The notes beneath the pieces are model-generated. The model saw nothing but the letters and a program-made list of their open reading frames with translations, was not told the DNA's origin and searched no databases. A stretch of 33,656 nucleotides of DNA from Candidatus Zhuqueibacterota bacterium. Lineage in GTDB: Bacteria > Zhuqueibacterota > Zhuqueibacteria > Zhuqueibacterales > Zhuqueibacteraceae. The stretch spans positions 1-33,656 of the forward strand of contig QEVD01000057.1 of NCBI GenBank assembly GCA_003576975.1, written 5' to 3'. Positions within the stretch are counted from its first letter, which is position 1; the number at the start of each line of letters is the position of its first letter. Of the stretch, positions 2,229 to 12,816 are shown in pieces. The position numbers and the translations under genes were made by a program.

Positions 2229-3563
2229 TCAAAATTGCACCCTGGTTTCAAGCGTTTTTTCGAATTTTTTGTAACTGGAATACGTCGGTTTTATTGTTAG
2301 TCGAATGATGTAAGTTCCGGCCTTCATCGGCTGATGATTTTGCGTCACGTGGGGAGGAATTTCCGAAGTAATCACCTGCCACGTGCCATCGAATAATTCC
2401 CGCCTCTCGCCGGAAAAGCGTAGAATATTCTCCATCGGTTTCGCCAGCGGTTTCTTCGCGGCATCGAGAATTTCGAGCGTGACATAACTGGGCTCCGTCA
2501 GAAAATACGTTAGCGAAAGAAACGCAGGATTGCCTTCGATCACGGCATGCACGTCACGAATATCGGCGCCAACCCAATAATATTGCACCGCCTCGCGCTC
2601 GGCGATGATAACCTGGCCGAAACGCTTGTAAATCGCCAGGCCGCGCGGCTCGTTGAATTCCTTTTCACCGCTGCCCCGCCGCCCGAAACTGGTGAGATAA
2701 TTCAAATCGCGGTCAAACTTGTGCAGGCAATGATTCGCGATGTCCGTCACATAGATATTGCTGTAGTAATCAATCGCAGCGTAAGCTAATCTGGCATTCG
2801 GCTTCTCGAGGCTGGCCATGGATTTGCCCGCCAGCAATTGCCCTTCCGGAGAAAATTTTTGCAGACGTTGCTGATTCTGATCGATCACAATCACAAACGC
2901 ATCTTTATAATACGACCACGAGTCGCTTGCCTCCGTCACGGCGATGCCGGTGGGATGGCTCAAATCGCCGTTTGCATTCCAACTGTTCACGAGCTGGTTA
3001 TTGCGATAAACGGCAATACGATTGTTGCCGGTATCCGCAATGTACAACGTCTGATCGGATGAGACGGCGACATCGCGCGGCGCATTGAACTCGTTGAGGC
3101 TGCGTACGAACTTCAGCTCTTTGCCGGGATTGAAAAAATGCACGACCCGGTTGTTGCCGGTATCCGCGACATAAACGTCGCCGTTGCGATGCGCGGCAAT
3201 GCCGTTGGGCTGCTTCAAGCGCCTTTCACCTGATTCATTCAAGCCATAGAATGCAATCGCGCTTTTGGAAGTATTGTAGATGATCATATTGTAGCCGGCA
3301 TTCACGCCGTAGACGGTCAACTCGTCGTCATCTTCTGCTCGTTTGGGATCCTCCCAACTATCCAACCGTGTGGCGGCCACGCCCTGCGGATTGTTGACCT
3401 TTACGCTGTTTTTGGTGTAGAGCTTGAGATGTGTCGCGGTCGCCTTCTGCACCCAGACATGAAGAAACGGCGGAAAAACCAGAGTGGTGGGATCGTATTT
3501 GTCACCTAGTGAATACAGCGAATTAAGGAGTACAGAATAAATTACAGCGGAGAAAGTATTCAT
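2229..3563 (-). CDS. NHL-repeat beta-propeller protein, 5' end probably rearranged
   Basis: A 444-aa protein of tandem NHL-type blades. The clearest read [29 protein letters not shown] and [15 protein letters not shown], roughly residues 110-310. The C-terminal 100 residues look like an Ig-like/FlgD-like beta domain ([15 protein letters not shown]). NHL propellers of this kind are usually exported or lipid-anchored. Here the first 20 residues ([11 protein letters not shown]...) form no proper signal peptide, and there is no clear ribosome-binding site before the ATG. From about DPTTLVFPP onward the protein and codon use look normal, while the bases before that match the AT-rich DNA at 3500-4058. 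I infer that the original 5' end was replaced or lost. It overlaps nothing but stops 2 bases before the purL ATG. No enzymatic role can be assigned. Confidence 0.8.
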
Positions 3564-4058
3564 AATCTGAATAAGACACGATTATTAGATAACAGATGTA
3601 AAATTTTTCATCTACTGAAACTTTTTCTGACGCCAATTGCATCCAGTAGTCGAGGTTGACGTGATTGTCATTATAGTCACAGTAGGCGAAGAAACGATCA
3701 AATTTCTCTAATATCTTCTTGATTCACCCTTCCAGATTTATCCTTGCAGTGTGTCAAATGCTGGATCAATATACAATTCATTTTTTGCTTCCACTAATGG
3801 TATTGCTTTGTCAAATTTCGGTCTCAGTCACGGTAACTGATGATATGTTATTTATCTCGTTCGTTGATACAAGTCCCTCATTACTGATTCTCTGCCGGAC
3901 GGTCGGCTAATCCATATTGATGATGAAGCTCACCACTTTCTTTGCTCTATTGTATTGCAAAAGATTCTTTTGCTTTCACCAGCTTTTGAATACAGACTAG
4001 CTACTAGTTTTTTGCTACCCATGCTTTTGTGCTTAATAGCGCCATCAGTGTCAGGCTG
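3564..4058. other. AT-rich gene-less stretch with possible decayed coding
   Basis: No intact gene is convincing here. The DNA is visibly more AT-rich than purL or the S1-coding DNA on either side. On the minus strand, three short pieces in different frames resemble a broken EF-hand pair: DKSGRVNQEDIREI (bases 3701-3742) and then FDRFFAYCDYNDNHVNLDYW (ending near 3643). The plus strand also has short open pieces, including one reading LPDGRLIHIDDEAHH near 3895-3940, so the original coding strand is uncertain. This may be relic DNA left by whatever inserted or rearranged beside the cassette. Confidence 0.4.
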
Positions 4059-6446
4059 CTATTTACTCAAGCGTTCGGACAAGATAATCTTTTTGCTGTC
4101 TTTGTTGAACTCGATAACGACCAGCTCGAGCGTGTCGCCGACCGCGTAGCCGTCCGCGGGCTTTGTTAAATTCGGCTTGGCCAGATGCGACATCGGCACA
4201 AAGCCATCAACTTCCGCTGGCAATTCCACAACCACGCCTTTGTCGATCATGCGCACGATTTTACCCGCAGTTTTGGTGTGTACCTTGTATTCGTTTTCAA
4301 AAGTGCCCCACGGATTGACTTTAACTTGCTTGTAGCCCAAAGAAATTCGGCGATGGTATTTGTCCACGTTCAACACCACGACATCGACTTCATCGCCTTT
4401 TTTCACCACTTCACCGGGATGGCGGATTTTCTTGGTCCATGAGAGATCCGAAATGTGCACCAAACCGTCGATGCCATCTTCCAGCTCGACGAACGCGCCG
4501 AAATTGGTAAGATTGCGCACCACGCCCTTTTGGTGCGAGCCAATCGGATACTTTTGCTCGATGTCATCCCAGGGATCGGGCTCGAGCTGCTTGAGACCGA
4601 GAGAAATCTTGCGTTCTTCGAGATCGATGTTCAACACCTTGGCATAGACCATCTCGCCGACCGACACGATTTTGCTGGGATGGCGAATGTGCTGCGTCCA
4701 GCTCATCTCAGAGATGTGTATCAAGCCTTCGATGCCGCGTTCCAATTCCACAAACGCGCCGTAGTCGGAGATGCTGACGACTTTGCCGCGCACCACGGTG
4801 CCCATAGGATATTTCTTGTCGACATCGACCCAGGGATGCGGCTGCAGTTGTTTCAGGCCGAGCGAAATGCGGTCTTTGGCCTCGTTGAAGTCGAGCACTT
4901 GCACTTTGATTTTCTCGTCGAGCGAGACGATTTCGGAAGGATGGCTGACGCGCCCCCACGAGAGATCGTTGGTGTGCAGCAAGCCATCGACGCCGCCGAG
5001 ATCGATAAACACACCGAAGTCGGTAATGTTTTTAACCGTGCCTTCCAGCACCTGGCCTTTGGCAAGGTTTTCAAGAATGCGGCCGCGTTGCTCAGACATC
5101 GCTTCTTCCACCAACACGCGATGCGAGACCACGATGTTCTTGCGCAGCTCATTGACTTTCACCACGCGAAAATCCATCATCTGGCCGATGTAGACGTCAA
5201 AATCGCGAATGGGATTCACATCGATTTGAGAGCTTGGCAAGTACGCTTCCAAACCCATTATATCGACTACAAGCCCCCCGGTGATTCGACGTATACAGCG
5301 TCCACGAATAATTTCACCTTCTTCATAAGCGGCTAACACATACCCCAAAATTCTTTCGTCTTCTTCTTTTTCCTCATTTAAGGGCTCGATTGCATCTGAT
5401 ATGAATTCGATAAATGGCAAAGGACGCGGCTTCCATTCGGTCTCTCGCACTTTTTGAATTACTCCTGGAATAAAACTTCGCAAACGCGCCTTTCTGTCTG
5501 TATCGCTTTGGGCGACTACAACTTCGTATCCAGAGAGCAATGATGGTATATCCTGAATTTTCTCAGTCAGAAGTATTTTTGAAATCTTATACTCAAATTG
5601 TCTTTCCAGAGCAATACTCATTCCTATAGCAATGAAGGTTTCGACTGAAGTATTTGGTGTAATGCGATAGATCGCGAAGGGGGTCGAACGTACTGTCTGA
5701 CAATGGCTGCAAAGCAGGAAATCATAATTTTCGATAATGGATAATTTTTCGAGATAGCTAAAAGTGACGTCACTAAAACGTCCCAGAACATTCTCAATGA
5801 TAATTCTAAAGTCCAGGCGATCAATATCTGGACCATCTGAAATATGGCAATGCAGTGTTTTTTGTCCCCATTGCTTCGCGCGTGGATGCGTTTCGCGATA
5901 TTCACAAATCTTGTTGCCGAAGATGCAATAACGATTCCACCAATCTCGATCCGGAGGTGTATTTACCCAATCCGGCAGGCGTGTTTCGAGCAATCGTTTC
6001 AGTGTCGATTCTCCACTAAATTCCAGAATGTGTCCGCTTAAGCTCTTCAAGCACTCTGGTAATTCCTGGTCTCGATTGCTGGCATGACGTAGCAACAACG
6101 TTGGTCGATTAAGGGCAATGGCCATACCTAACTCGATGAGGACGTTTCGGGGCATTTGCCACATACCTTTTTCATTACGCCAGTAGGAGAGATCATAGAT
6201 GCCATAGCGAGCGTTGGAAATAAGCTCAATAGCTTTTTCTCGGAGGGTAACATTGGGGTCGAAGTATTTGCCCGCATAATCGAGTTCCAAGTTGAACTCT
6301 GGTCGGCACAAAACTTCCTGGCATGCGCTTAACAAATCGTCAGCCCATTCCGCTTGTGTGGAATAGGCGACGAAGCACTTTTGGCGTATGTAAGCTTGGT
6401 ACTGTGGACTGAGTCCAACGAAGTTTTGAGGTTTTTCTTCGTTCAT
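4059..6446 (-). CDS. Tandem TIR-like domains fused to ribosomal-protein-S1-type repeats (S1 domains 2-6)
   Basis: A 795-aa chimera. Residues 22-155 form a TIR-like/deoxyribosyltransferase-like fold (CFVAYS strand, ARYGIYDLS, then NVLIELGMAIALNRPTLLL with Glu105). Residues 205-315 are a second copy (PFAIYRI, ETFIAIGMSIAL) with Ala273 in place of that Glu. From about 375 to the end there are five S1 OB-fold repeats matching bacterial S1 domains 2-6, e.g. GLVVDIMGLEAYLPSSQIDV at 391-410, ISLGLKQLQPHPW, ISLGLKQLEPDPW and ISLGYKQVKVNPW. S1 domain 1, which helps anchor S1 to the ribosome in E. coli, is absent and the TIR-like pair sits in its place. Last gene of the three-gene operon; its ATG is 2 bases after the preceding stop. 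The S1 part could bind mRNA or the ribosome and the TIR-like part could bind or cleave a nucleotide; both are inferences. Base composition shifts between the two halves. Confidence 0.88.
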   Translation of the reverse strand: MNEEKPQNFVGLSPQYQAYIRQKCFVAYSTQAEWADDLLSACQEVLCRPEFNLELDYAGKYFDPNVTLREKAIELISNARYGIYDLSYWRNEKGMWQMPRNVLIELGMAIALNRPTLLLRHASNRDQELPECLKSLSGHILEFSGESTLKRLLETRLPDWVNTPPDRDWWNRYCIFGNKICEYRETHPRAKQWGQKTLHCHISDGPDIDRLDFRIIIENVLGRFSDVTFSYLEKLSIIENYDFLLCSHCQTVRSTPFAIYRITPNTSVETFIAIGMSIALERQFEYKISKILLTEKIQDIPSLLSGYEVVVAQSDTDRKARLRSFIPGVIQKVRETEWKPRPLPFIEFISDAIEPLNEEKEEDERILGYVLAAYEEGEIIRGRCIRRITGGLVVDIMGLEAYLPSSQIDVNPIRDFDVYIGQMMDFRVVKVNELRKNIVVSHRVLVEEAMSEQRGRILENLAKGQVLEGTVKNITDFGVFIDLGGVDGLLHTNDLSWGRVSHPSEIVSLDEKIKVQVLDFNEAKDRISLGLKQLQPHPWVDVDKKYPMGTVVRGKVVSISDYGAFVELERGIEGLIHISEMSWTQHIRHPSKIVSVGEMVYAKVLNIDLEERKISLGLKQLEPDPWDDIEQKYPIGSHQKGVVRNLTNFGAFVELEDGIDGLVHISDLSWTKKIRHPGEVVKKGDEVDVVVLNVDKYHRRISLGYKQVKVNPWGTFENEYKVHTKTAGKIVRMIDKGVVVELPAEVDGFVPMSHLAKPNLTKPADGYAVGDTLELVVIEFNKDSKKIILSERLSK

Positions 6447-6448
6447 GG

Positions 6449-8965
6449 TTACGCTTGCTTTTGTATGCGCGTCATATGTGCCTGCACTAGTTCTTGAAAG
6501 TGTGGTCCATTCTCGTACATAAAACTTTCAAAGAATTCTCCCACGACGTCTTCCAATCCTATGGCGTAGGATTCCGAACACGATTCCTTTTCCAAGCGAT
6601 TTCTAAGCTGTCGATCTAATGTCTGTTTGATCATCGCTTCTGTAAAATGCAATTGCCTATCTAAATCGGCCAGTAGGCGTGTTACTTCAAACTTTAGCGA
6701 GAGGCCTTCCCACAAATGCGCCAAAATGAATTCTTCAAATCGTTTCTGAATATCTCGACGAATGTCAGCATCAGTTGGCAGGGACTTTAGCGGTATAGCC
6801 AAATTCTTGAATCGACGAATCAGCCAGGCGGCCAATTCGCTTGGCATCATCTCCACCAACTTGGTCAGTTGATTGCTATCGTATGTTCCATCCGCCACGC
6901 CTAAGCCAAGATCAATAATTCGGTTCGTGTCCAACTGCTTCTCATTTAGCCATGTGCGCATTTGCTTCACTAAGTCGCGTCCCGCATCGTCCGCGTTGTG
7001 CAAGACCATGAGAGGAAGCTCGCTGCGGACAAGGCATTGCATCAGTCCATCTTGGAGTTTATCTATATCCGTCAAATTGCGCAAAAGCGCCATGTCCATC
7101 TGGCAAAGCCAACCATTTTCGATCACTACAGGTTCCAGCTCACGTACTTGCAGGTAGAGTATTTTGTTGACGTGATGCTTGGTCAACAAATCTTGAGAGA
7201 GGTGCTCAGTTAACACCGTAAAATGACGATCCGAATGCAAAGGAATTGATAATGTCCCTGCTGCCGGTCGCGCCACATGATGAGTGAGGGTGGTATTACG
7301 GCTTTGATAGTTGGTGATATATGTTCGCAAACGACTCTGCGCATCAGGAGTTTCTAACCATTTGGAAAGAGCGAGGTCTTGACTAAGTTTGGCGCATAGT
7401 TTCTCTAACAGTTGATCAAAAACAAATCTTTCGTTCTCGTCCAATTCACTCAAAATTGTGTCAAGCATTTTGAAAACCGTCTGCTCCAAGCGTAATTCTG
7501 CTTCCTCCCGTGTCTGCTTTAAGGCAACCAACAACTGGCCCATCAGCTCCCCTAAAACTTGTTTGAACGGCAGGTGGTTGATCTCGGTTTTGCTAAATTC
7601 GTTGGACTCAATGTTGGGACAAATTAAGTGCAGGAATAGAGCCAAGGGAGTATCCTCGGTCAGGTCATAGGCATCCATGAGACCACGCAATCCAAGGACA
7701 GGATCGTCGGGCTTAATCGGAGCGCGCAACCAGCGACGAAGAAAAGGATCGTCGTAGGTTGGCGTGAAATTGATAGCCGTCCAAATTTGTCTCTTGCCTT
7801 CCTTTAGATGAGCTACCGCTGCCTCAATGACAAAGGGTATACCAGGTTCATCTCCGGCATCGGTAAAAGTTTTATACAGCACGTCGCCGTCAACTGGAAA
7901 AACTCTGTTTATTATCGTGCGCATGTGTTCTAGCCCGATGCCTCCTAAGAGGGTTGATTCAAAACGTGCGCTGTTCTGGCTCAATGCGCGGTACAACTGC
8001 ATAGAAACATCACCTTGAATCTCAATCGCAGTCAGGCTTTTCTGCTTAATGACTTGAGAAATGGTATTTCTTTGCCTAGCAGTAACCGCTTGATTGTCAA
8101 ATTGGGCGAAACAACGACAAACTGCTTCTATGGGTAAAGTATTAGCTTTATCGCCGTCGCACTGCTTGCGATATAGCGCACCGAGCAAATCTTGGAAGGC
8201 TGATTGCGTATACCAATGTATCGGCGCAATCCCTAAAAATTTCTTTGACCAATTCGGATTGGCCACATATTCTTCCGTCCATTCCTTATCTCTAATCTCA
8301 ACCGTCCAATGGAACCGTGCGTGGGGATTGCACAAGTGATACTGTTCTGCAAGCAGCTTGATCTGTGACAATGTACGTGGCATTTCTTGTTCAAAATGAT
8401 CGAGGCCAACACTGATGAGTGTGCCATCAACGGACTTACCTTTTTTCTTCGTGTACTCGAAACGAATCGTCTGAGCCGTAGAATCTACTTCAAAACGTGG
8501 CAGGTATTCCATTCCGCTGCAAAGGATGGAAAGCGGTTTGAGTTCCGGATTCCAATCTCCCGCTGCACGGTTACGTAATGCGTATGGAATTCCCAATAAT
8601 GTCTTGAGCGCGTTACCCAATGCGCCACGTGTCAACCCTTTGATAAATGCCTTGCGTGAGGTGTACCACTGCGTGGCAAAAATATCCTCGATCTGATCGA
8701 CTGGAAATCTCGCACGATTGCTCACCTGCACGAATAATTGATGACATTGTTGTTGCGGCACATTGATATATTCCATGCGGATATTTAAACGCGGGTATTT
8801 TTTGCGATCTTCACGCCAAAGTGTCTCATCGGCATCAAGCGCATTATCAAGCAATTCCTTGACGATATACAAGTCCCACTCATGTGGAGGGCGACCTGTC
8901 ACACGACGCAGACCATCCAGCCGGACGAAGTCGAATTCGCGATTAAATGAGAAAGCTTCAGACAT
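6449..8965 (-). CDS. Topo VI-B/GHKL-type ATPase with a probable C-terminal TOPRIM domain
   Basis: An 838-aa protein. The N-terminus has a Bergerat (GHKL) ATP-binding N-box, KELLDNALDADET (36-48), and a glycine-rich lid RGALGNALKTLLGIP (113-127) of the Topo VI-B type. The usual DxGxG motif is not recognisable; the corresponding place reads VSNRARF (81-87). A transducer-like region follows to about 430. Near the C-terminus, ILYLQVRELEP and LMVLHNADDAGRDLVKQ, followed by IIDLGLG, look like the Glu and DxD motifs of a Topo VI-A/Spo11-like TOPRIM domain. This would be a single-chain type IIB topoisomerase-like protein or a DNA-acting ATPase in a conflict system. I could not place a catalytic tyrosine with confidence. 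Middle gene of the cassette, 8 bases after its upstream neighbour and 2 before the next, with no clear ribosome-binding site, so coupled translation is likely. Confidence 0.8.
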   Translation of the reverse strand: MSEAFSFNREFDFVRLDGLRRVTGRPPHEWDLYIVKELLDNALDADETLWREDRKKYPRLNIRMEYINVPQQQCHQLFVQVSNRARFPVDQIEDIFATQWYTSRKAFIKGLTRGALGNALKTLLGIPYALRNRAAGDWNPELKPLSILCSGMEYLPRFEVDSTAQTIRFEYTKKKGKSVDGTLISVGLDHFEQEMPRTLSQIKLLAEQYHLCNPHARFHWTVEIRDKEWTEEYVANPNWSKKFLGIAPIHWYTQSAFQDLLGALYRKQCDGDKANTLPIEAVCRCFAQFDNQAVTARQRNTISQVIKQKSLTAIEIQGDVSMQLYRALSQNSARFESTLLGGIGLEHMRTIINRVFPVDGDVLYKTFTDAGDEPGIPFVIEAAVAHLKEGKRQIWTAINFTPTYDDPFLRRWLRAPIKPDDPVLGLRGLMDAYDLTEDTPLALFLHLICPNIESNEFSKTEINHLPFKQVLGELMGQLLVALKQTREEAELRLEQTVFKMLDTILSELDENERFVFDQLLEKLCAKLSQDLALSKWLETPDAQSRLRTYITNYQSRNTTLTHHVARPAAGTLSIPLHSDRHFTVLTEHLSQDLLTKHHVNKILYLQVRELEPVVIENGWLCQMDMALLRNLTDIDKLQDGLMQCLVRSELPLMVLHNADDAGRDLVKQMRTWLNEKQLDTNRIIDLGLGVADGTYDSNQLTKLVEMMPSELAAWLIRRFKNLAIPLKSLPTDADIRRDIQKRFEEFILAHLWEGLSLKFEVTRLLADLDRQLHFTEAMIKQTLDRQLRNRLEKESCSESYAIGLEDVVGEFFESFMYENGPHFQELVQAHMTRIQKQA

Positions 8966-8973
8966 AAGAATCT

Positions 8974-10581
8974 CTATTTCGCGTATCTCTCAAAAAAGAG
9001 TTGATGTCTCAGGACGATTTCTTTTTTCAGATTAACAAAGCTATTGAACTGGTATATTGTCATACCTCGAATATCCAATGGAACTTCTCGACCAGTTCGG
9101 TGAATCATCAGAAAAGGCCGGTTGAGACCGATACTGATGCCCAAAGCTAAAAATGTGGTTGGCGAGCTAGATTCGTCCACACGATAAATCGCAAAGCGAG
9201 AGGCTTGAATAGCTTCAACAAGCTGCTCAAGTATCCAACTCGATTCACTTTTAGTTCTCAGTCGCTCGGTCAAAGATACGACCTTTAAATCGGAGTAGGC
9301 GTTTCCAAGTGCCTCGGCAACACTCGCCTCAAAATCTTCATCTTCGATAAGTTCGCCAGCAGCGATCAAATATTCGGACTTGTTGCTGGCTGTCGGCAGG
9401 TTAGTAGTAAAACGCACAACACCAAAGTTGTATTCCTCAATCCGACTTGCTAATTCACGACGCATTGTGCGGAAAAGTCCGCCTTTCACATACCGAGTCA
9501 AGCCCTCCAACACAGATGGGATATGAGCTTCGTAGTGCTGGATGAGAAAAAACGGGGCGCCAATACCAATGGCAATGCCTAATTCCAAGTACACGTTGCG
9601 ATCTTGTGATGGCGGCAAAAGAAAAATGCTGAAACGCGTGGTACATAACTTCTCACTTATTCCGCACAACCGAAAACCCCCGAGCAATGTGTCACCTGAA
9701 AAATATGGTTTGAGTGATTGTTGGTTGCCGCTGACCTGGGCCAATGTTTCGATGAATGTTTGTCGCCAGTCGGCCAGCGTATCTTGGTCCAAACCGTGAG
9801 AAATGAAGTACTCGTCGATAGCGATTTTTAGAGGACGGCCTTTGCATAACCCATTTTCAAATAAAGCTGGCAAATGATGAAGTCGGGCTTGAATCGTCTT
9901 TACAGCTTGATTGGTTTGTATCAGACCAGTTGCATCCATCTCTTCAGTGAGTTGATTAGCCAACTCTTTTTGCCCAGCCTTGTAAGCAGCGCCTAAGAAC
10001 GCAGGTGAAAGCTTGGTTGCTAATAATTCGGTTATATAAGACTTCATCCGCTCTTCGCTTGCTTGAATTTCGGCTACGAGTGTGTTGGTCTGGTCCACGA
10101 CTTCGAGCAGGATAGCCATCTGCGGAACACTGAGTTGCTCGCATAATACTTTGCGATAGCATTCAATGAAGTCGGGAATGATTTGCTCCGGTTTGAACCC
10201 ACGTTTTGGAATCAATAATTTTGTATTGGTTTCCCTATCGAGATGTTTGTCGAGAGCTAGATCAATCTCAACTTGGTTTATCGGCTGTCGATCTAAAATG
10301 TATCCCCCAATTTGTTTGGCAACAATGGGATCGCGGAAAAAAGTTATGATGCCAGTTAATTCACGCTGGGGGTACTTATCGAAGTAGAACCGAAGCGCCT
10401 TGTTCAGCGTATCGTGCAGTCGTTCGTCAAAGTTGGGCTGAACTAATCCAACCCGCTTCAACATTCTTCCGACCAAGGTGTCATCCAGCATCTGTAAATA
10501 ATGCCGCAAAATGCCTGCAGCAATTTCAGTTAGTAGGCCAGCAGTAAGTGCAATTGTTGTGAAGGGTCCGGGTTCAGGCAT
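8974..10581 (-). CDS. Helical N-terminal domain plus two TIR-like domains
   Basis: A 535-aa protein that opens the cassette operon. Residues 1-240 are helical, with a hydrophobic start (TTIALTAGLLTEIAAGI) and then ERLHDTLNKALRFYFDKYP and FFRDPIVAKQIGG. The rhythm recalls the N-terminal helical domains of NACHT/NLR-type immune proteins, but that is only a pattern match. Residues 295-395 are a TIR-like domain (RFSIFLLPPSQDRNVYLELG, Glu333). Residues 440-525 are a second copy (SRFAIYRVDESS, TTFLALGISIGLNRPFLMIH) with Ala479 at the equivalent position. The same Glu/Ala arrangement occurs in the S1-fusion protein, so the two are paralogous or co-evolved partners. It starts at an ATG with a weak AGGAAA upstream. 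Likely a nucleotide-sensing or nucleotide-cleaving effector; function unproven. Confidence 0.8.
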   Translation of the reverse strand: MPEPGPFTTIALTAGLLTEIAAGILRHYLQMLDDTLVGRMLKRVGLVQPNFDERLHDTLNKALRFYFDKYPQRELTGIITFFRDPIVAKQIGGYILDRQPINQVEIDLALDKHLDRETNTKLLIPKRGFKPEQIIPDFIECYRKVLCEQLSVPQMAILLEVVDQTNTLVAEIQASEERMKSYITELLATKLSPAFLGAAYKAGQKELANQLTEEMDATGLIQTNQAVKTIQARLHHLPALFENGLCKGRPLKIAIDEYFISHGLDQDTLADWRQTFIETLAQVSGNQQSLKPYFSGDTLLGGFRLCGISEKLCTTRFSIFLLPPSQDRNVYLELGIAIGIGAPFFLIQHYEAHIPSVLEGLTRYVKGGLFRTMRRELASRIEEYNFGVVRFTTNLPTASNKSEYLIAAGELIEDEDFEASVAEALGNAYSDLKVVSLTERLRTKSESSWILEQLVEAIQASRFAIYRVDESSSPTTFLALGISIGLNRPFLMIHRTGREVPLDIRGMTIYQFNSFVNLKKEIVLRHQLFFERYAK

Positions 10582-10917
10582 TTTATGGTTTTCCTGATGG
10601 TTATGAGTCGAAATTCAATGTTAATTAGTTAATCGAATGGTACAGAAATTTCGCACAATTTTCAAGAAACGGTTTGATTCGAGGTTTTGTTTGAGAATTT
10701 TTTATCTGAGTTTTTGCAGCTGAATCAGGTAATCCCACCAAGGCCGTAAGGCCGGAGGCTAAGGAAAGGCTCGGCGTCAAAAACCCGCACAATGCGATGG
10801 GTAAAATCCTATGCTTGCAACCGAGTCGTTGTGCTGGTAGATGAATAGCGCTACAGGGCAGTTGTGCTTGCACATTGCGGGAGCCAGCCTTGGGCACTCA
10901 ATTGCTGTGACAAAGCT
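10582..10917. other. Spacer upstream of the cassette; AT-rich half and GC-richer repeat-like half
   Basis: Bases 10582-10735 are AT-rich and must hold the cassette promoter; a minus-strand TTAACTAATTAACATTG stretch is the only promoter-like sequence I can point to, and only weakly. Bases about 10736-10900 are richer in G+C. They contain GGCCGTAAGGCC (10741-10752), a short stem with a GNRA-type loop, and a minus-strand open frame at 10625-10897 that could encode 90 aa. That frame shows no domain and no good ribosome-binding site, so I do not call it a gene. The GC-rich half may be a dispersed repeat at the edge of the cassette, or the original spacer after uvrC. Confidence 0.4.
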
Positions 10918-12816
10918 TCACGAAGTTGCACTTTTCTCCTCTTCATTTGTCGCCTGTTCACTCGCCATTTTCGGTCCCGCCTTTTGTTTATCTCGCATGG
11001 TGTGAAAGTAATCCCAAATTTTTTGTGCAATGGCCGGTGTGATGCCCTGCACCAAAATCAACTCGTCGACTGAGGCCTGGCGCACGCCCTCGAGTGAGCC
11101 GTAAAATTTCAACAAGGCATTGCGCCGCGCCGGGCCCACGCCGTCGATTTTCGACAGCTCGGAATCCGTTGTGCGCTTGGTGCGCAAACTGCGATGAAAG
11201 GTTACGCCGAAACGATGCGCCTCATCGCGGAGCTGCTGCAGCAATTTTAATCCTGAAGAATGACGCGGAATGTTTTGCGCCTCCATGGCGCCCGGCACGA
11301 ACACTTCATCCAGCCGTTTGGCCAGCGCCGCAATGGGAATATTAAGGTTCAGCTTTTGCAGGATGCTTTGCGCGCTGCTGAGTTGCCCCTTGCCGCCGTC
11401 AACGAGAATCAAATCCGGCAGCGGAAGTTTTTGTGCAAGGGAACCGGCATAGCGCCGCTCCACGGCTTCGGCCATCATGGCAAAATCATCCGGCGTGTGC
11501 TGGCCGCGGATTTTGAATTTGCGATAATCCGATTTTTTGGAACGGCCGTCGACGAACGTCACCATGGCCGCCACAGCATCCGTGCCTTGAATGTTGGAAA
11601 TATCAAAGCATTCAATCCGGCGCGGCGGTTTTTCCAAGTGCAGATCGCGTTGCAACGCGACAACGCTGTGCGGTACTTTGAGCTTGGTCTTCATCTTTTG
11701 CAGCTTCAACTCTTGCAGCAGCAAATGCGCATTCTTGGCGCACATTTCAACGAGTTTGGCTTTTTCGCCGAGTTTGGGCGTGACGAGCTGCACCGGCCCT
11801 TCACGCCTGTTTTCCAACCAGATTCTGACGTCCTCACGCTCCGGGATCTCGCACGGCAAGTTGATTTCTTCGGGAATGAAATCAGCCTTGAGATAATATT
11901 GTTTCGCAAACGAGGCCACAACGTTCTCGTAAGGCTCTTGAAATACTCCGTTGAGATAATAATGCTGCCGGCCAATAATTTTTCCATCGCGCACTTTGAA
12001 TACGGCGCCGGTCGCGTCTTCATCTTCCATGGCAACGGATACAATGTCGCGATCTTTGAGATCTTCCGTCACGATTTTTTGACGATATTGAAACTCCTCA
12101 ATGAAGCGAATGCGATCGCGCATCTTGCCCGCTTCTTCATACAAACGTTTCTCTGCCAGCGTTTGCATTTTATCCTGCATCTCTTTCACGACCTGGCGAT
12201 CGCGGCCATTGATGAAATTGACCACTTGCTGCACGACTTTGCCATAGTCCTCCGCCGAAACCAGGCCCTCGCACGGGCCGTCACATTTTTTGATGTAATA
12301 ATCCAGGCAGAGTTTGTATTTCTTGCGCGCGATGATTTCTGGCGTGAAATGATAATTGCAACTGCGAATCGGAAAGATGCGCTTCACCGCGCGCAGCAAG
12401 GCCTTCATCTGGCCGACATCGGTGTAGGGGCCAAAGTATTGTGAGCCGTCTTTCACGATTCGACGGGTGGGGAAGATGCGCGGAAACATTTCATGCGTGA
12501 CGCGAATGTAGGGATAGCTCTTGTCATCGCGCAGGTTGACGTTGTAGCGCGGGCGGTATTCCTTGATCAGATTCATTTCGAGAATCAATGCTTCCATCTC
12601 GGAATCCGTGACGATGATCTCGAAGTCGGCAATGCGGCTGCGCAAACGCGCGGTTTTGGGATCGAGCGGGCGGCCCTCCTGAAAATACGACCGCACGCGC
12701 GGGCGCAGAACCTTGGCCTTGCCCACATAAATGATTTTTCCTGCGCGGTCTTTGAACTGATAAACGCCGGGCTTCAGCGGCAGATTTTCCAATTTGTTTT
12801 GAATGGCAGAATTCAT
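10918..12816 (-). CDS. uvrC: UvrABC excinuclease subunit C
   Basis: Makes the two incisions around a DNA lesion in nucleotide excision repair, together with UvrA and UvrB. The product is 632 aa, normal for the family. Domains in order: GIY-YIG nuclease (PGVYQFKD at 16-23, IIYVGKAKVLRPRVRSYF), a four-cysteine cluster (Cys153, 170, 178, 182) in the position that binds Fe-S in characterised UvrC, the UVR coiled coil for UvrB (about 207-243), the RNase H-like second nuclease (ECFDISNIQG with Asp405; DLILVDGGKGQ with Asp473), and tandem helix-hairpin-helix motifs (LSKIDGVGPARRNALLKFYG and ILVQGITPAIAQKIW). The ATG start fits the family. The permease gene ends 15 bases upstream on the same strand, so they may share a transcript. 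Confidence 0.97.
   Translation of the reverse strand: MNSAIQNKLENLPLKPGVYQFKDRAGKIIYVGKAKVLRPRVRSYFQEGRPLDPKTARLRSRIADFEIIVTDSEMEALILEMNLIKEYRPRYNVNLRDDKSYPYIRVTHEMFPRIFPTRRIVKDGSQYFGPYTDVGQMKALLRAVKRIFPIRSCNYHFTPEIIARKKYKLCLDYYIKKCDGPCEGLVSAEDYGKVVQQVVNFINGRDRQVVKEMQDKMQTLAEKRLYEEAGKMRDRIRFIEEFQYRQKIVTEDLKDRDIVSVAMEDEDATGAVFKVRDGKIIGRQHYYLNGVFQEPYENVVASFAKQYYLKADFIPEEINLPCEIPEREDVRIWLENRREGPVQLVTPKLGEKAKLVEMCAKNAHLLLQELKLQKMKTKLKVPHSVVALQRDLHLEKPPRRIECFDISNIQGTDAVAAMVTFVDGRSKKSDYRKFKIRGQHTPDDFAMMAEAVERRYAGSLAQKLPLPDLILVDGGKGQLSSAQSILQKLNLNIPIAALAKRLDEVFVPGAMEAQNIPRHSSGLKLLQQLRDEAHRFGVTFHRSLRTKRTTDSELSKIDGVGPARRNALLKFYGSLEGVRQASVDELILVQGITPAIAQKIWDYFHTMRDKQKAGPKMASEQATNEEEKSATS

What the first reader, a model, noticed from the sequence alone, without database searches (positions are those of the whole stretch)
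4059..10581. Candidate new conflict system: TIR-like protein, Topo VI-like ATPase and TIR-like/S1 fusion in one operon
Three large minus-strand genes separated by only 8 and 2 bases combine two tandem TIR-like proteins, a GHKL/TOPRIM-type DNA ATPase and an S1-repeat RNA-binding module. Their composition differs from the housekeeping genes on both sides. TIR-like nucleotide-processing domains and GHKL/Topo VI-type ATPases are both recurrent in prokaryotic conflict systems. I know of no described system with exactly this trio.
Basis: partly seen in the sequence, partly recalled or inferred. Interest (0 to 1): 0.88.

Follow-up and report, generated by a model that had tools for sequence, protein, structure and literature searches.

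The report
TIR operon carrying copied ribosomal S1
A rare three-gene cassette, probably an immune system, joins enzyme-like domains and a degenerate DNA-clamp-like protein to a swappable module that here is a near-copy of the host's own ribosomal protein S1, perhaps a bait for viruses that attack S1.

Summary
The three genes are real, intact and spaced as stated. The trio is inserted between uvrC and an NHL gene; two congeneric genomes have that site empty. The same order A-B-C' recurs in a Xenococcus (cyanobacterial) MAG (60/55/52% identity), over two contigs sharing a 25-bp overlap. Elsewhere it is very rare: B and C's front in 1 of 82 genomes searched of its phylum (the host), A and C's front in 1 of 386 cyanobacteria.

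Protein C is the surprise. Residues 413-700 and 723-795 are a near-copy of this host's own ribosomal protein S1 (part of D2 to D6; D1 missing), grouping with the species' own rpsA. Two diverged, low-GC3 patches (351-412, 701-722) suggest that an older S1 fusion was overwritten by host rpsA in tracts. The S1 part is under purifying selection. In Xenococcus the same TIR-like front carries DUF1257/Ycf35 instead.

B is a Topo VI/VIII-type GHKL relative lacking the G1 aspartate; a TOPRIM is not supported. A and C share a paired TIR/NDT-like unit, one domain keeping NVxxELG.

Best reading: a TIR-type conflict system whose third protein carries an exchangeable bait, here host-matched S1. Defence, catalysis and bait function are inferred.

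The parts
8974..10581 (-). Gene A, 535 aa: helical N-terminal region plus a pair of TIR/nucleoside-deoxyribosyltransferase-like domains
9832..10581 (-). A residues 1-250, predicted mostly helical (low-confidence model; pLDDT above 50 only in 48-150); no significant family match
8977..9831 (-). A residues 251-535, TIR/NDT-like pair: first domain keeps NVYLELG (from 329), second has TFLALG in its place (from 476)
6449..8965 (-). Gene B, 838 aa: Topo VI/VIII-type GHKL relative
8396..8965 (-). B residues 1-190, GHKL region: N-box KELLDNALDA (36), G1 position reads VSNRARFP (81) where relatives read DNGPG or DDGPG, lid TRGALGNALK (112), GTLI (181)
6896..7171 (-). B residues 599-690, position where a TOPRIM would lie; acidic residues not conserved (HNADD here, HNVSK in Xenococcus); assignment by eye only
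4059..6446 (-). Gene C, 795 aa: TIR/NDT-like pair fused to ribosomal protein S1 domains D2-D6
5397..6446 (-). C residues 1-350, TIR/NDT-like pair: NVLIELG at 101, FIAIGMS at 271; 52% identical to Xenococcus C'
5211..5396 (-). C residues 351-412: linker and front of S1 D2; diverged from host rpsA, GC3 0.365 over 351-402 (foreign-like patch 1)
4347..5210 (-). C residues 413-700: end of S1 D2, D3, D4, D5; host-rpsA-like tract
4281..4346 (-). C residues 701-722: S1 D5-D6 linker, diverged low-GC patch 2 (22 codons)
4062..4280 (-). C residues 723-795: S1 D6; most host-like tract (24 of 25 informative sites match this host)
10637..10665 (-). Promoter-like hexamers upstream of A (TTGAAA-17-TACCAT); number of such sites in the region not above chance

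Best explanation
A-B-C is a horizontally acquired conflict (probably anti-phage) system. A and C carry related TIR/NDT-like pairs in which one domain keeps the acidic NVxxELG site and the other has lost it; they would form the nucleotide- or NAD-cleaving part. B is a Topo VI/VIII-like GHKL protein that has lost a key ATP-site residue and probably acts as a DNA-bound clamp, scaffold or regulator rather than as a topoisomerase. The C-terminus of C is an exchangeable module related to a cellular protein: S1 D2-D6 here, Ycf35/DUF1257 in Xenococcus. In this host the S1 module appears to have been overwritten by tracts of the host's own rpsA and is kept under purifying selection. Most likely it is an integrated bait: phage factors that bind or modify S1 touch the bait, which releases the TIR activity and stops the infected cell. 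Shown by computation: gene order, fusion, empty sites, module exchange, host-lineage origin of the S1 tracts, mosaic pattern and purifying selection. Inferred: repeated gene conversion, defence role, TIR catalysis, complex formation, bait function.
For: Same order A-B-C' in a cyanobacterium. Inserted between uvrC and NHL: gap about 7.35 kb here against about 0.5 kb (G001) and 0.85 kb (G002). The front of C is conserved while its C-terminus is exchanged. S1 part: 94.7% aa identity to host rpsA over the last 393 codons; host-like tracts group with the native G000/G467 rpsA, support 0.98-1.0; two patches hold 38 of 49 amino-acid differences in 84 of 445 codons. Changes polarised to the C branch, at sites where G001 and G002 agree: 9 nonsynonymous, 26 synonymous. 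C lacks D1 and keeps D2, D5 and D6, which phage T4 attacks in E. coli S1: ModB modifies D2 and D6 strongly and the others, D1 included, less (PMC10468400, passages); RIII mainly targets D5 (PMC9409239, section 2.2). DUF1257-like proteins occur in cyanophages (5 records of 3 phages, about 30% identity). The stretch of C' between the TIR pair and DUF1257 matches proteins on cyanobacterial plasmids, one annotated NB-ARC and one passing the Pfam NB-ARC cut-off. A bacterial defence protein triggered by a phage protein bound to a host housekeeping protein is known (CapRel-FtsZ, PMC13423816, abstract), and decoys (inactive enzyme copies) were proposed for conflict systems (PMC7159879, passages).
Against: Only two members are known. 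The Xenococcus Ycf35 module is just 41% identical to the other copy found in that genome, so host matching is not seen there, and I know no function of Ycf35. The C branch carries more amino-acid changes than the native branch (9:26 against 1:29, p = 0.016), so matching is not perfect. Homologous recombination with a conserved gene could overwrite S1 without selection for matching. None of 15 flanking window proteins scanned with Pfam matched a defence family (3 of the 15 had no match at all; PADLOC was not run on them). TIR matches of the window proteins are below curated cut-offs. No structure could be predicted well (mean pLDDT 37.5 and 35.6).
Confidence: 0.4

Rival explanations
1. S1 is the aiming part of an effector, not a bait: it brings the TIR/NDT-like enzyme to mRNA or ribosomes so that nucleotides or RNA ends are processed there, and B triggers it on sensing foreign DNA.
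For: S1-like and other RNA-binding OB domains are listed among effector domains of conflict systems (PMC7159879, passage; PMC8195603, passage). Five S1 domains under purifying selection fit real RNA binding. B as a Topo VI/VIII relative is a plausible DNA sensor.
Against: It does not by itself explain why the module is a host-lineage rpsA copy, nor the replacement by DUF1257 plus a zinc-ribbon-like end in Xenococcus, although the latter may also bind nucleic acid. D1, recalled as the main ribosome anchor of S1, is absent.
Confidence: 0.25
2. Conflict system with an S1 module whose likeness to the host rpsA is neutral: ectopic gene conversion between two similar genes, with no advantage from matching.
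For: Segments of different synonymous divergence (pS from 0.08 to 0.55 in the host-like tracts) are what random gene conversion gives; a highly conserved gene is an easy partner.
Against: The reading frame is intact and the tracts stay constrained; but the latter could also mean only that S1 must fold.
Confidence: 0.2
3. Not defence: a maintenance or replication module of plasmids or integrative elements built round a Topo VIII-like protein.
For: B's distant relatives are plasmid-borne (Synechococcus and Halalkalicoccus plasmids), and the Xenococcus trio shares its two contigs with ParA and ParB genes and a weakly TraC-like ATPase (17.1 bits, cut-off 28.1).
Against: The G1 motif is lost in both members. 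In the window the trio stands among chromosomal-type metabolic genes, with no mobility gene among the flanking proteins scanned. TIR-like pairs and the linker domain shared with NB-ARC-type proteins point to conflict.
Confidence: 0.12
4. Assembly artefact: a chimeric contig joined a TIR gene to rpsA.
For: The assembly is in 776 contigs.
Against: The S1 part differs from the resident rpsA by about 10% of bases, mostly silently, has its own diverged patches, ends at its own stop and is followed by non-rpsA sequence and the conserved NHL neighbour.
Confidence: 0.03

Closest known systems
TIR/CAP12-PCTIR (PF10137) and Nuc_deoxyrib_tr (PF05014) domains, effectors of conflict systems such as CBASS and Pycsar (system names partly recalled)
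   Same: C' of Xenococcus passes the PF10137 cut-off; A and C each hold one domain with the acidic motif and one without
   Different: No cyclase, NLR or Argonaute gene beside them; tandem pairs on two proteins; partner is a Topo VI/VIII-like protein
DNA topoisomerase VI subunit B / topoisomerase VIII (type IIB)
   Same: N-box, lid and GTxI motifs; distant plasmid relatives hit Topo VI B and, in one, the Spo11/Topo VI A TOPRIM
   Different: G1 aspartate missing, TOPRIM not demonstrable, operon with TIR-like genes
Bacterial ribosomal protein S1 (rpsA)
   Same: 90% aa identity to the host copy over 355-795; the S1 part scores above the cut-off of two S1 equivalog models (600.7 against 524; 522.9 against 368)
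   Different: D1 and the C-terminal tail missing; fused to a TIR-like pair; below the cut-off of the best-scoring S1 model (660.1 against 720)
vWA-MoxR/VMAP and TERNS conflict systems (PMC7159879, PMC8195603; passages only)
   Same: TIR or DRHyd domains, S1-like domains and proposed decoys in modular multi-gene systems
   Different: No MoxR, vWA or STAND gene in the trio; module is a host-lineage copy rather than a generic domain
CapRel-Ebc sensing Gp0.4-FtsZ (PMC13423816, abstract)
   Same: Immune sensing through a phage-attacked housekeeping protein
   Different: There the host protein is free; here its copy would be built into the immune protein

Membership tests
TIR / CAP12-PCTIR effector | Sequence match to family profile above curated cut-off | tested here: inconclusive
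   Met for Xenococcus C' (27.0 bits, 27.9; cut-off 24.7); not met by window A (18.1) or C (no PF10137 hit); C and C' fronts are 52% identical
TIR / CAP12-PCTIR effector | Conserved acidic residue in the NVxxELG-type motif (role of the motif recalled) | tested here: met
   NVYLELG in A (329), NVLIELG in C (101), Glu kept in Xenococcus; absent in the second domain of each pair
TIR / CAP12-PCTIR effector | NAD or nucleotide cleavage | not testable with these tools
   needs assay
Topo VI B / Topo VIII ATPase | GHKL N-box and lid glycines | tested here: met
   KELLDNALDA and TRGALGNALK align with the Synechococcus plasmid homologue
Topo VI B / Topo VIII ATPase | G1 motif DxGxG | tested here: not met
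   VSNRARFP and VSNRSIFP in place of DNGPG
Topo VIII (fused A and B parts) | C-terminal TOPRIM with Glu and DxD | tested here: not met
   No Pfam TOPRIM hit for B, hhalign 0.7%, acidic residues not conserved between the two members
Ribosomal protein S1 | Match to S1 equivalog models above curated cut-off | tested here: met
   Above for NF004952 (600.7/524) and NF005208 (522.9/368), below for NF004953 (660.1/720) and most others listed
Ribosomal protein S1 | Full domain set including the N-terminal D1 (ribosome anchor, recalled) | tested here: not met
   Homology to the host rpsA starts near its residue 149; D2-D6 only; a separate 661-aa rpsA exists in the genome
Described anti-phage systems in PADLOC-DB 2.0.0 | Confident match of the proteins to system models | tested here: not met
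   For A only effector-TIR (E 3.9e-5, 71 residues), JetA (0.0044) and PDC-M21B (0.039); none for B and C at E 0.1; Xenococcus proteins likewise weak
Anti-phage defence system | Protection from phage | not testable with these tools
   needs plaque assays

The most novel reading that the evidence does not exclude
A bacterial immune receptor with an integrated decoy: the C-terminus of the TIR-like protein is an exchangeable copy of a phage-attacked cellular protein, and in this lineage the decoy is refreshed by repeated gene conversion from the resident rpsA so that it keeps matching the true target, in the manner of the integrated domains of plant NLR receptors.
Probability: 0.25. Interest if true: 0.93.

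Novelty: new variant of a known kind. Interest (0 to 1): 0.72.

Why it matters
If C is a bait, bacteria would hold the plant-like trick of building a copy of the attacked protein into the immune receptor, and would keep it up to date by recombination with the real gene. It also gives a simple way to find further baits: look for TIR-type proteins fused to near-copies of resident housekeeping genes. Even without the bait reading, a degenerate topoisomerase relative working with paired TIR-like proteins would be a new arrangement among conflict systems.

Tried and rejected
Structure prediction of A and B from two-row alignments gave mean pLDDT 37.5 and 35.6, so no fold search was run. PDB profile searches with A1, A2 and A3 gave nothing significant (best E 0.39, 0.26 and 0.13; the last, for C's front, nucleoside 2-deoxyribosyltransferases). 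Viral-contig scans for B and A confirmed no relative; a B motif pattern gave 5 viral stretches, none with a convincing match by tblastn (best E 0.37; all 5 searched), and an A motif pattern gave none. Plasmid searches with A and the front of C: no match; B in phages: no match. Rfam and tRNA: nothing in the window. No target-site duplication was recognised at the insertion: repeats listed in 3400-11000 are short or lie within the S1 repeats (20 of 25 direct families shown). A was searched in cyanobacteria and the own genome, not through the window's phylum. G467 (same species) lacks B and C's front but also lacks uvrC, so its state at this site cannot be judged. An assembly chimera was considered and rejected (see rivals). 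Two partial cyanobacterial hits for B (G084, with two stops inside; G096) were weak and are not counted as members.

Dropped rows: of the 15 genomes with rpsA searched, G005 (one in-frame stop reported), G004 and G013 (no full-length copy) were left out; one search used 5 relatives besides the host, one search used 10 full rpsA rows of relatives plus the two G467 pieces. G467 rpsA is split over two contigs and its two pieces were analysed apart.
Full report
Observation. Three minus-strand ORFs lie at 8974-10581 (A, 535 aa), 6449-8965 (B, 838 aa) and 4059-6446 (C, 795 aa) with gaps of 8 and 2 bp. The neighbours are uvrC on one side and an NHL-repeat gene followed by a purL-like AIR-synthase gene on the other. 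A, B and the first 350 residues of C have GC3 0.43-0.48, against 0.61-0.64 for the NHL gene and uvrC. A promoter-like pair sits at 10665-10637(-), but such sites are no commoner in the region than in shuffles (11 against a mean of 10.7).

It is an insertion. In G001 and G002, of the same genus, the NHL gene follows uvrC, with about 0.5 and 0.85 kb between them, where the window has about 7.35 kb. A third genome, G467, given as the same species, lacks B and C's front, but uvrC is also not found in it, so it says nothing about the site. No tRNA lies in the window; no integrase was among the flanking proteins scanned and no clear target duplication was seen.

It recurs. A scan of genome contigs with B, which reaches close relatives only, found one, in a Xenococcus MAG: a 545-aa A homologue overlapping B by one base, B being cut by the contig end. 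Searching that genome with C found a 570-aa protein on another contig. The two contigs share 25 identical bases inside B, so the order A-B-C' is kept. Identities are 60% (A), 55% (the larger part of B) and 52% (front of C). The Xenococcus contigs also hold ParA and ParB genes and a weakly TraC-like ATPase, below cut-off. Beyond that the system is very rare in what was searched: B in 1 of 60 and 1 of 82 genomes of the window's own kin, and C's front in 1 of 82, each time the host itself; in 386 cyanobacteria A in 1, C's front in 1 and B in 3, of which two are weak partial hits. A and C's front had no match in plasmids, B none in phages.

Protein A and the front of C. Both hold a pair of TIR/NDT-like domains, shown by profile-profile match to each other (97.6%). 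The window proteins hit PF05014 and, for A, PF10137 only below cut-off, but Xenococcus C' passes the PF10137 cut-off. In each pair the first domain keeps NVxxELG (A 329, C 101) and the second does not (A TFLALG, C FIAIGM). I recall this acidic motif as the catalytic one in this fold; no call tested activity. The first 250 residues of A look helical in a low-confidence model and match no family significantly.

Protein B. Its only direct NCBIfam hit is Topo VI B at E 0.0011, and Pfam gave none at 0.1. Relatives give the clue: a Synechococcus plasmid protein (24% identity) and, found with the Xenococcus B, a Halalkalicoccus plasmid protein of 906 aa that matches Topo VI B (6e-13) and the Spo11/Topo VI A TOPRIM (4e-7). 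Hhalign links B to it at 97.2% over residues 15-478. B keeps the N-box, the lid and the GTxI motif but reads VSNRARFP where these relatives read DNGPG or DDGPG. Its C-terminal part could not be linked to a TOPRIM (0.7%). Topo VIII and Mini-A, relatives of Topo VI mainly encoded by mobile elements, are described (PMC8185306, passages; the original paper is not held).

Protein C, the main finding. Residues 355-795 are 90% identical to ribosomal protein S1 from the same genome (contig C649), a complete 661-aa rpsA. The fused part begins at what I read as the D1-D2 linker; D2-D6 start near 376, 463, 548, 635 and 722 (labels mine). Two S1 equivalog models of NCBIfam score it above their cut-offs, the best-scoring one below. 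Over the last 393 codons C and native rpsA differ at 10% of bases, dS 0.468 and dN/dS 0.063, closer than either is to G001 (dS 0.90 and 0.84). Host-like tracts group with the native copies of G000 and G467 with support 0.98-1.0; in the 600-795 tree the order inside that group is unresolved (0.263) and the place of the group among the relatives is weak (0.668). Two patches do not fit: 351-412 and 701-722 hold 38 of the 49 amino-acid differences in 84 of 445 codons (Fisher p about 6e-22, with borders chosen after seeing the data; by a scan permutation the second patch is reached in 24 of 20,000). pS is 0.94 in 351-402, 0.56 in the transition 403-412 and 0.91 in 701-722; GC3 is 0.365 (351-402) and 0.50 (701-722) against about 0.7. 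The tree of 360-405 puts C on a branch of 0.85. Synonymous divergence also differs between the host-like tracts (p = 0.011), and host-specific bases are shared at 24 of 25 sites in 723-795 but at 51 of 80 in 403-700 (p = 0.0017; 7 further sites in 403-700 match neither side and were left out). The plain reading is an older S1 fusion overwritten by host rpsA in several events; fast local divergence of the patches after one capture is the alternative. The longest identical run, 24 codons, is not clearly unusual (1,051 of 20,000). On the C branch 9 nonsynonymous and 26 synonymous changes were counted, on the native branch 1 and 29 (only sites where G001 and G002 agree, in 413-700 and 723-795): constrained, but less than the native gene (p = 0.016).

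Module exchange. In Xenococcus C' the part after the TIR-like pair is a short stretch that matches proteins on cyanobacterial plasmids (4 of 5 records; one annotated NB-ARC, and one that passes the Pfam NB-ARC cut-off), then DUF1257 (Ycf35; E 1.1e-20) and a zinc-ribbon-like end below cut-off. The other DUF1257 copy found in that genome is 41% identical, so this is no recent copy of it. DUF1257-like proteins are also found in 5 phage records of 3 phages, at about 30% identity.

Mechanism. I favour an integrated bait (confidence 0.4). S1 is attacked by T4: ModB modifies D2 and D6 strongly and the other domains less (PMC10468400, passages), RIII mainly targets D5 (PMC9409239, section 2.2). These are domains that C keeps, while D1, recalled as the ribosome anchor, is missing. 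Sensing through a phage-bound host protein exists in CapRel-FtsZ (PMC13423816, abstract), and decoys have been proposed for conflict systems, for inactive enzyme copies (PMC7159879, passages). The main rival is that S1 merely aims the enzyme at RNA: S1-like domains are listed among effectors (PMC7159879; PMC8195603). Neutral gene conversion is a third reading.

Literature. My ten searches listed no paper on a TIR-Topo VI/VIII-S1 trio; several lists were capped and the library lacks most subscription journals. PMC13040014, PMC10123090 and PMC10586767 were seen only in a listing with the start of the abstract.

Verdict. Real, inserted, rare, and stranger than first described: the interest lies in the host-derived, exchangeable third module. 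Function remains untested.

Noticed in passing
window 3564-4058: About 495 bp of sequence between C and the NHL gene with no ORF of 80 aa or more lying wholly inside it; possibly a remnant of the inserted element.
   Followed up: no
L053 end and L054 end (G467): In the same-species genome G467 the rpsA gene is broken between two contigs at residue 423, with no long shared overlap (4 bp at most in the ends printed); cause unknown.
   Followed up: partly
L057:5858-14015: Pseudanabaena plasmid gene row with GrpE, Hsp70, DUF1257, ATP-binding protein, DUF2997 and AAA ATPase, a chaperone-like set around DUF1257 that may be another uncharacterised system.
   Followed up: no
L060:5962-8682: Halalkalicoccus plasmid protein with Topo VI B-like N-terminus and Spo11/Topo VI A TOPRIM C-terminus, annotated only as hypothetical; looks like a Topo VIII.
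   Followed up: partly
L048, L049, L050 (G009, G010, G007): Several genomes of the order hold a second S1-like protein, 33-35% identical to the host rpsA, in open frames of 510-550 aa, besides rpsA (similar at 29-30% in G008 and G011).
   Followed up: no
L058:5998-7455: Tolypothrix plasmid NB-ARC/AAA-type protein begins with the same short domain as the linker in Xenococcus C'.
   Followed up: partly
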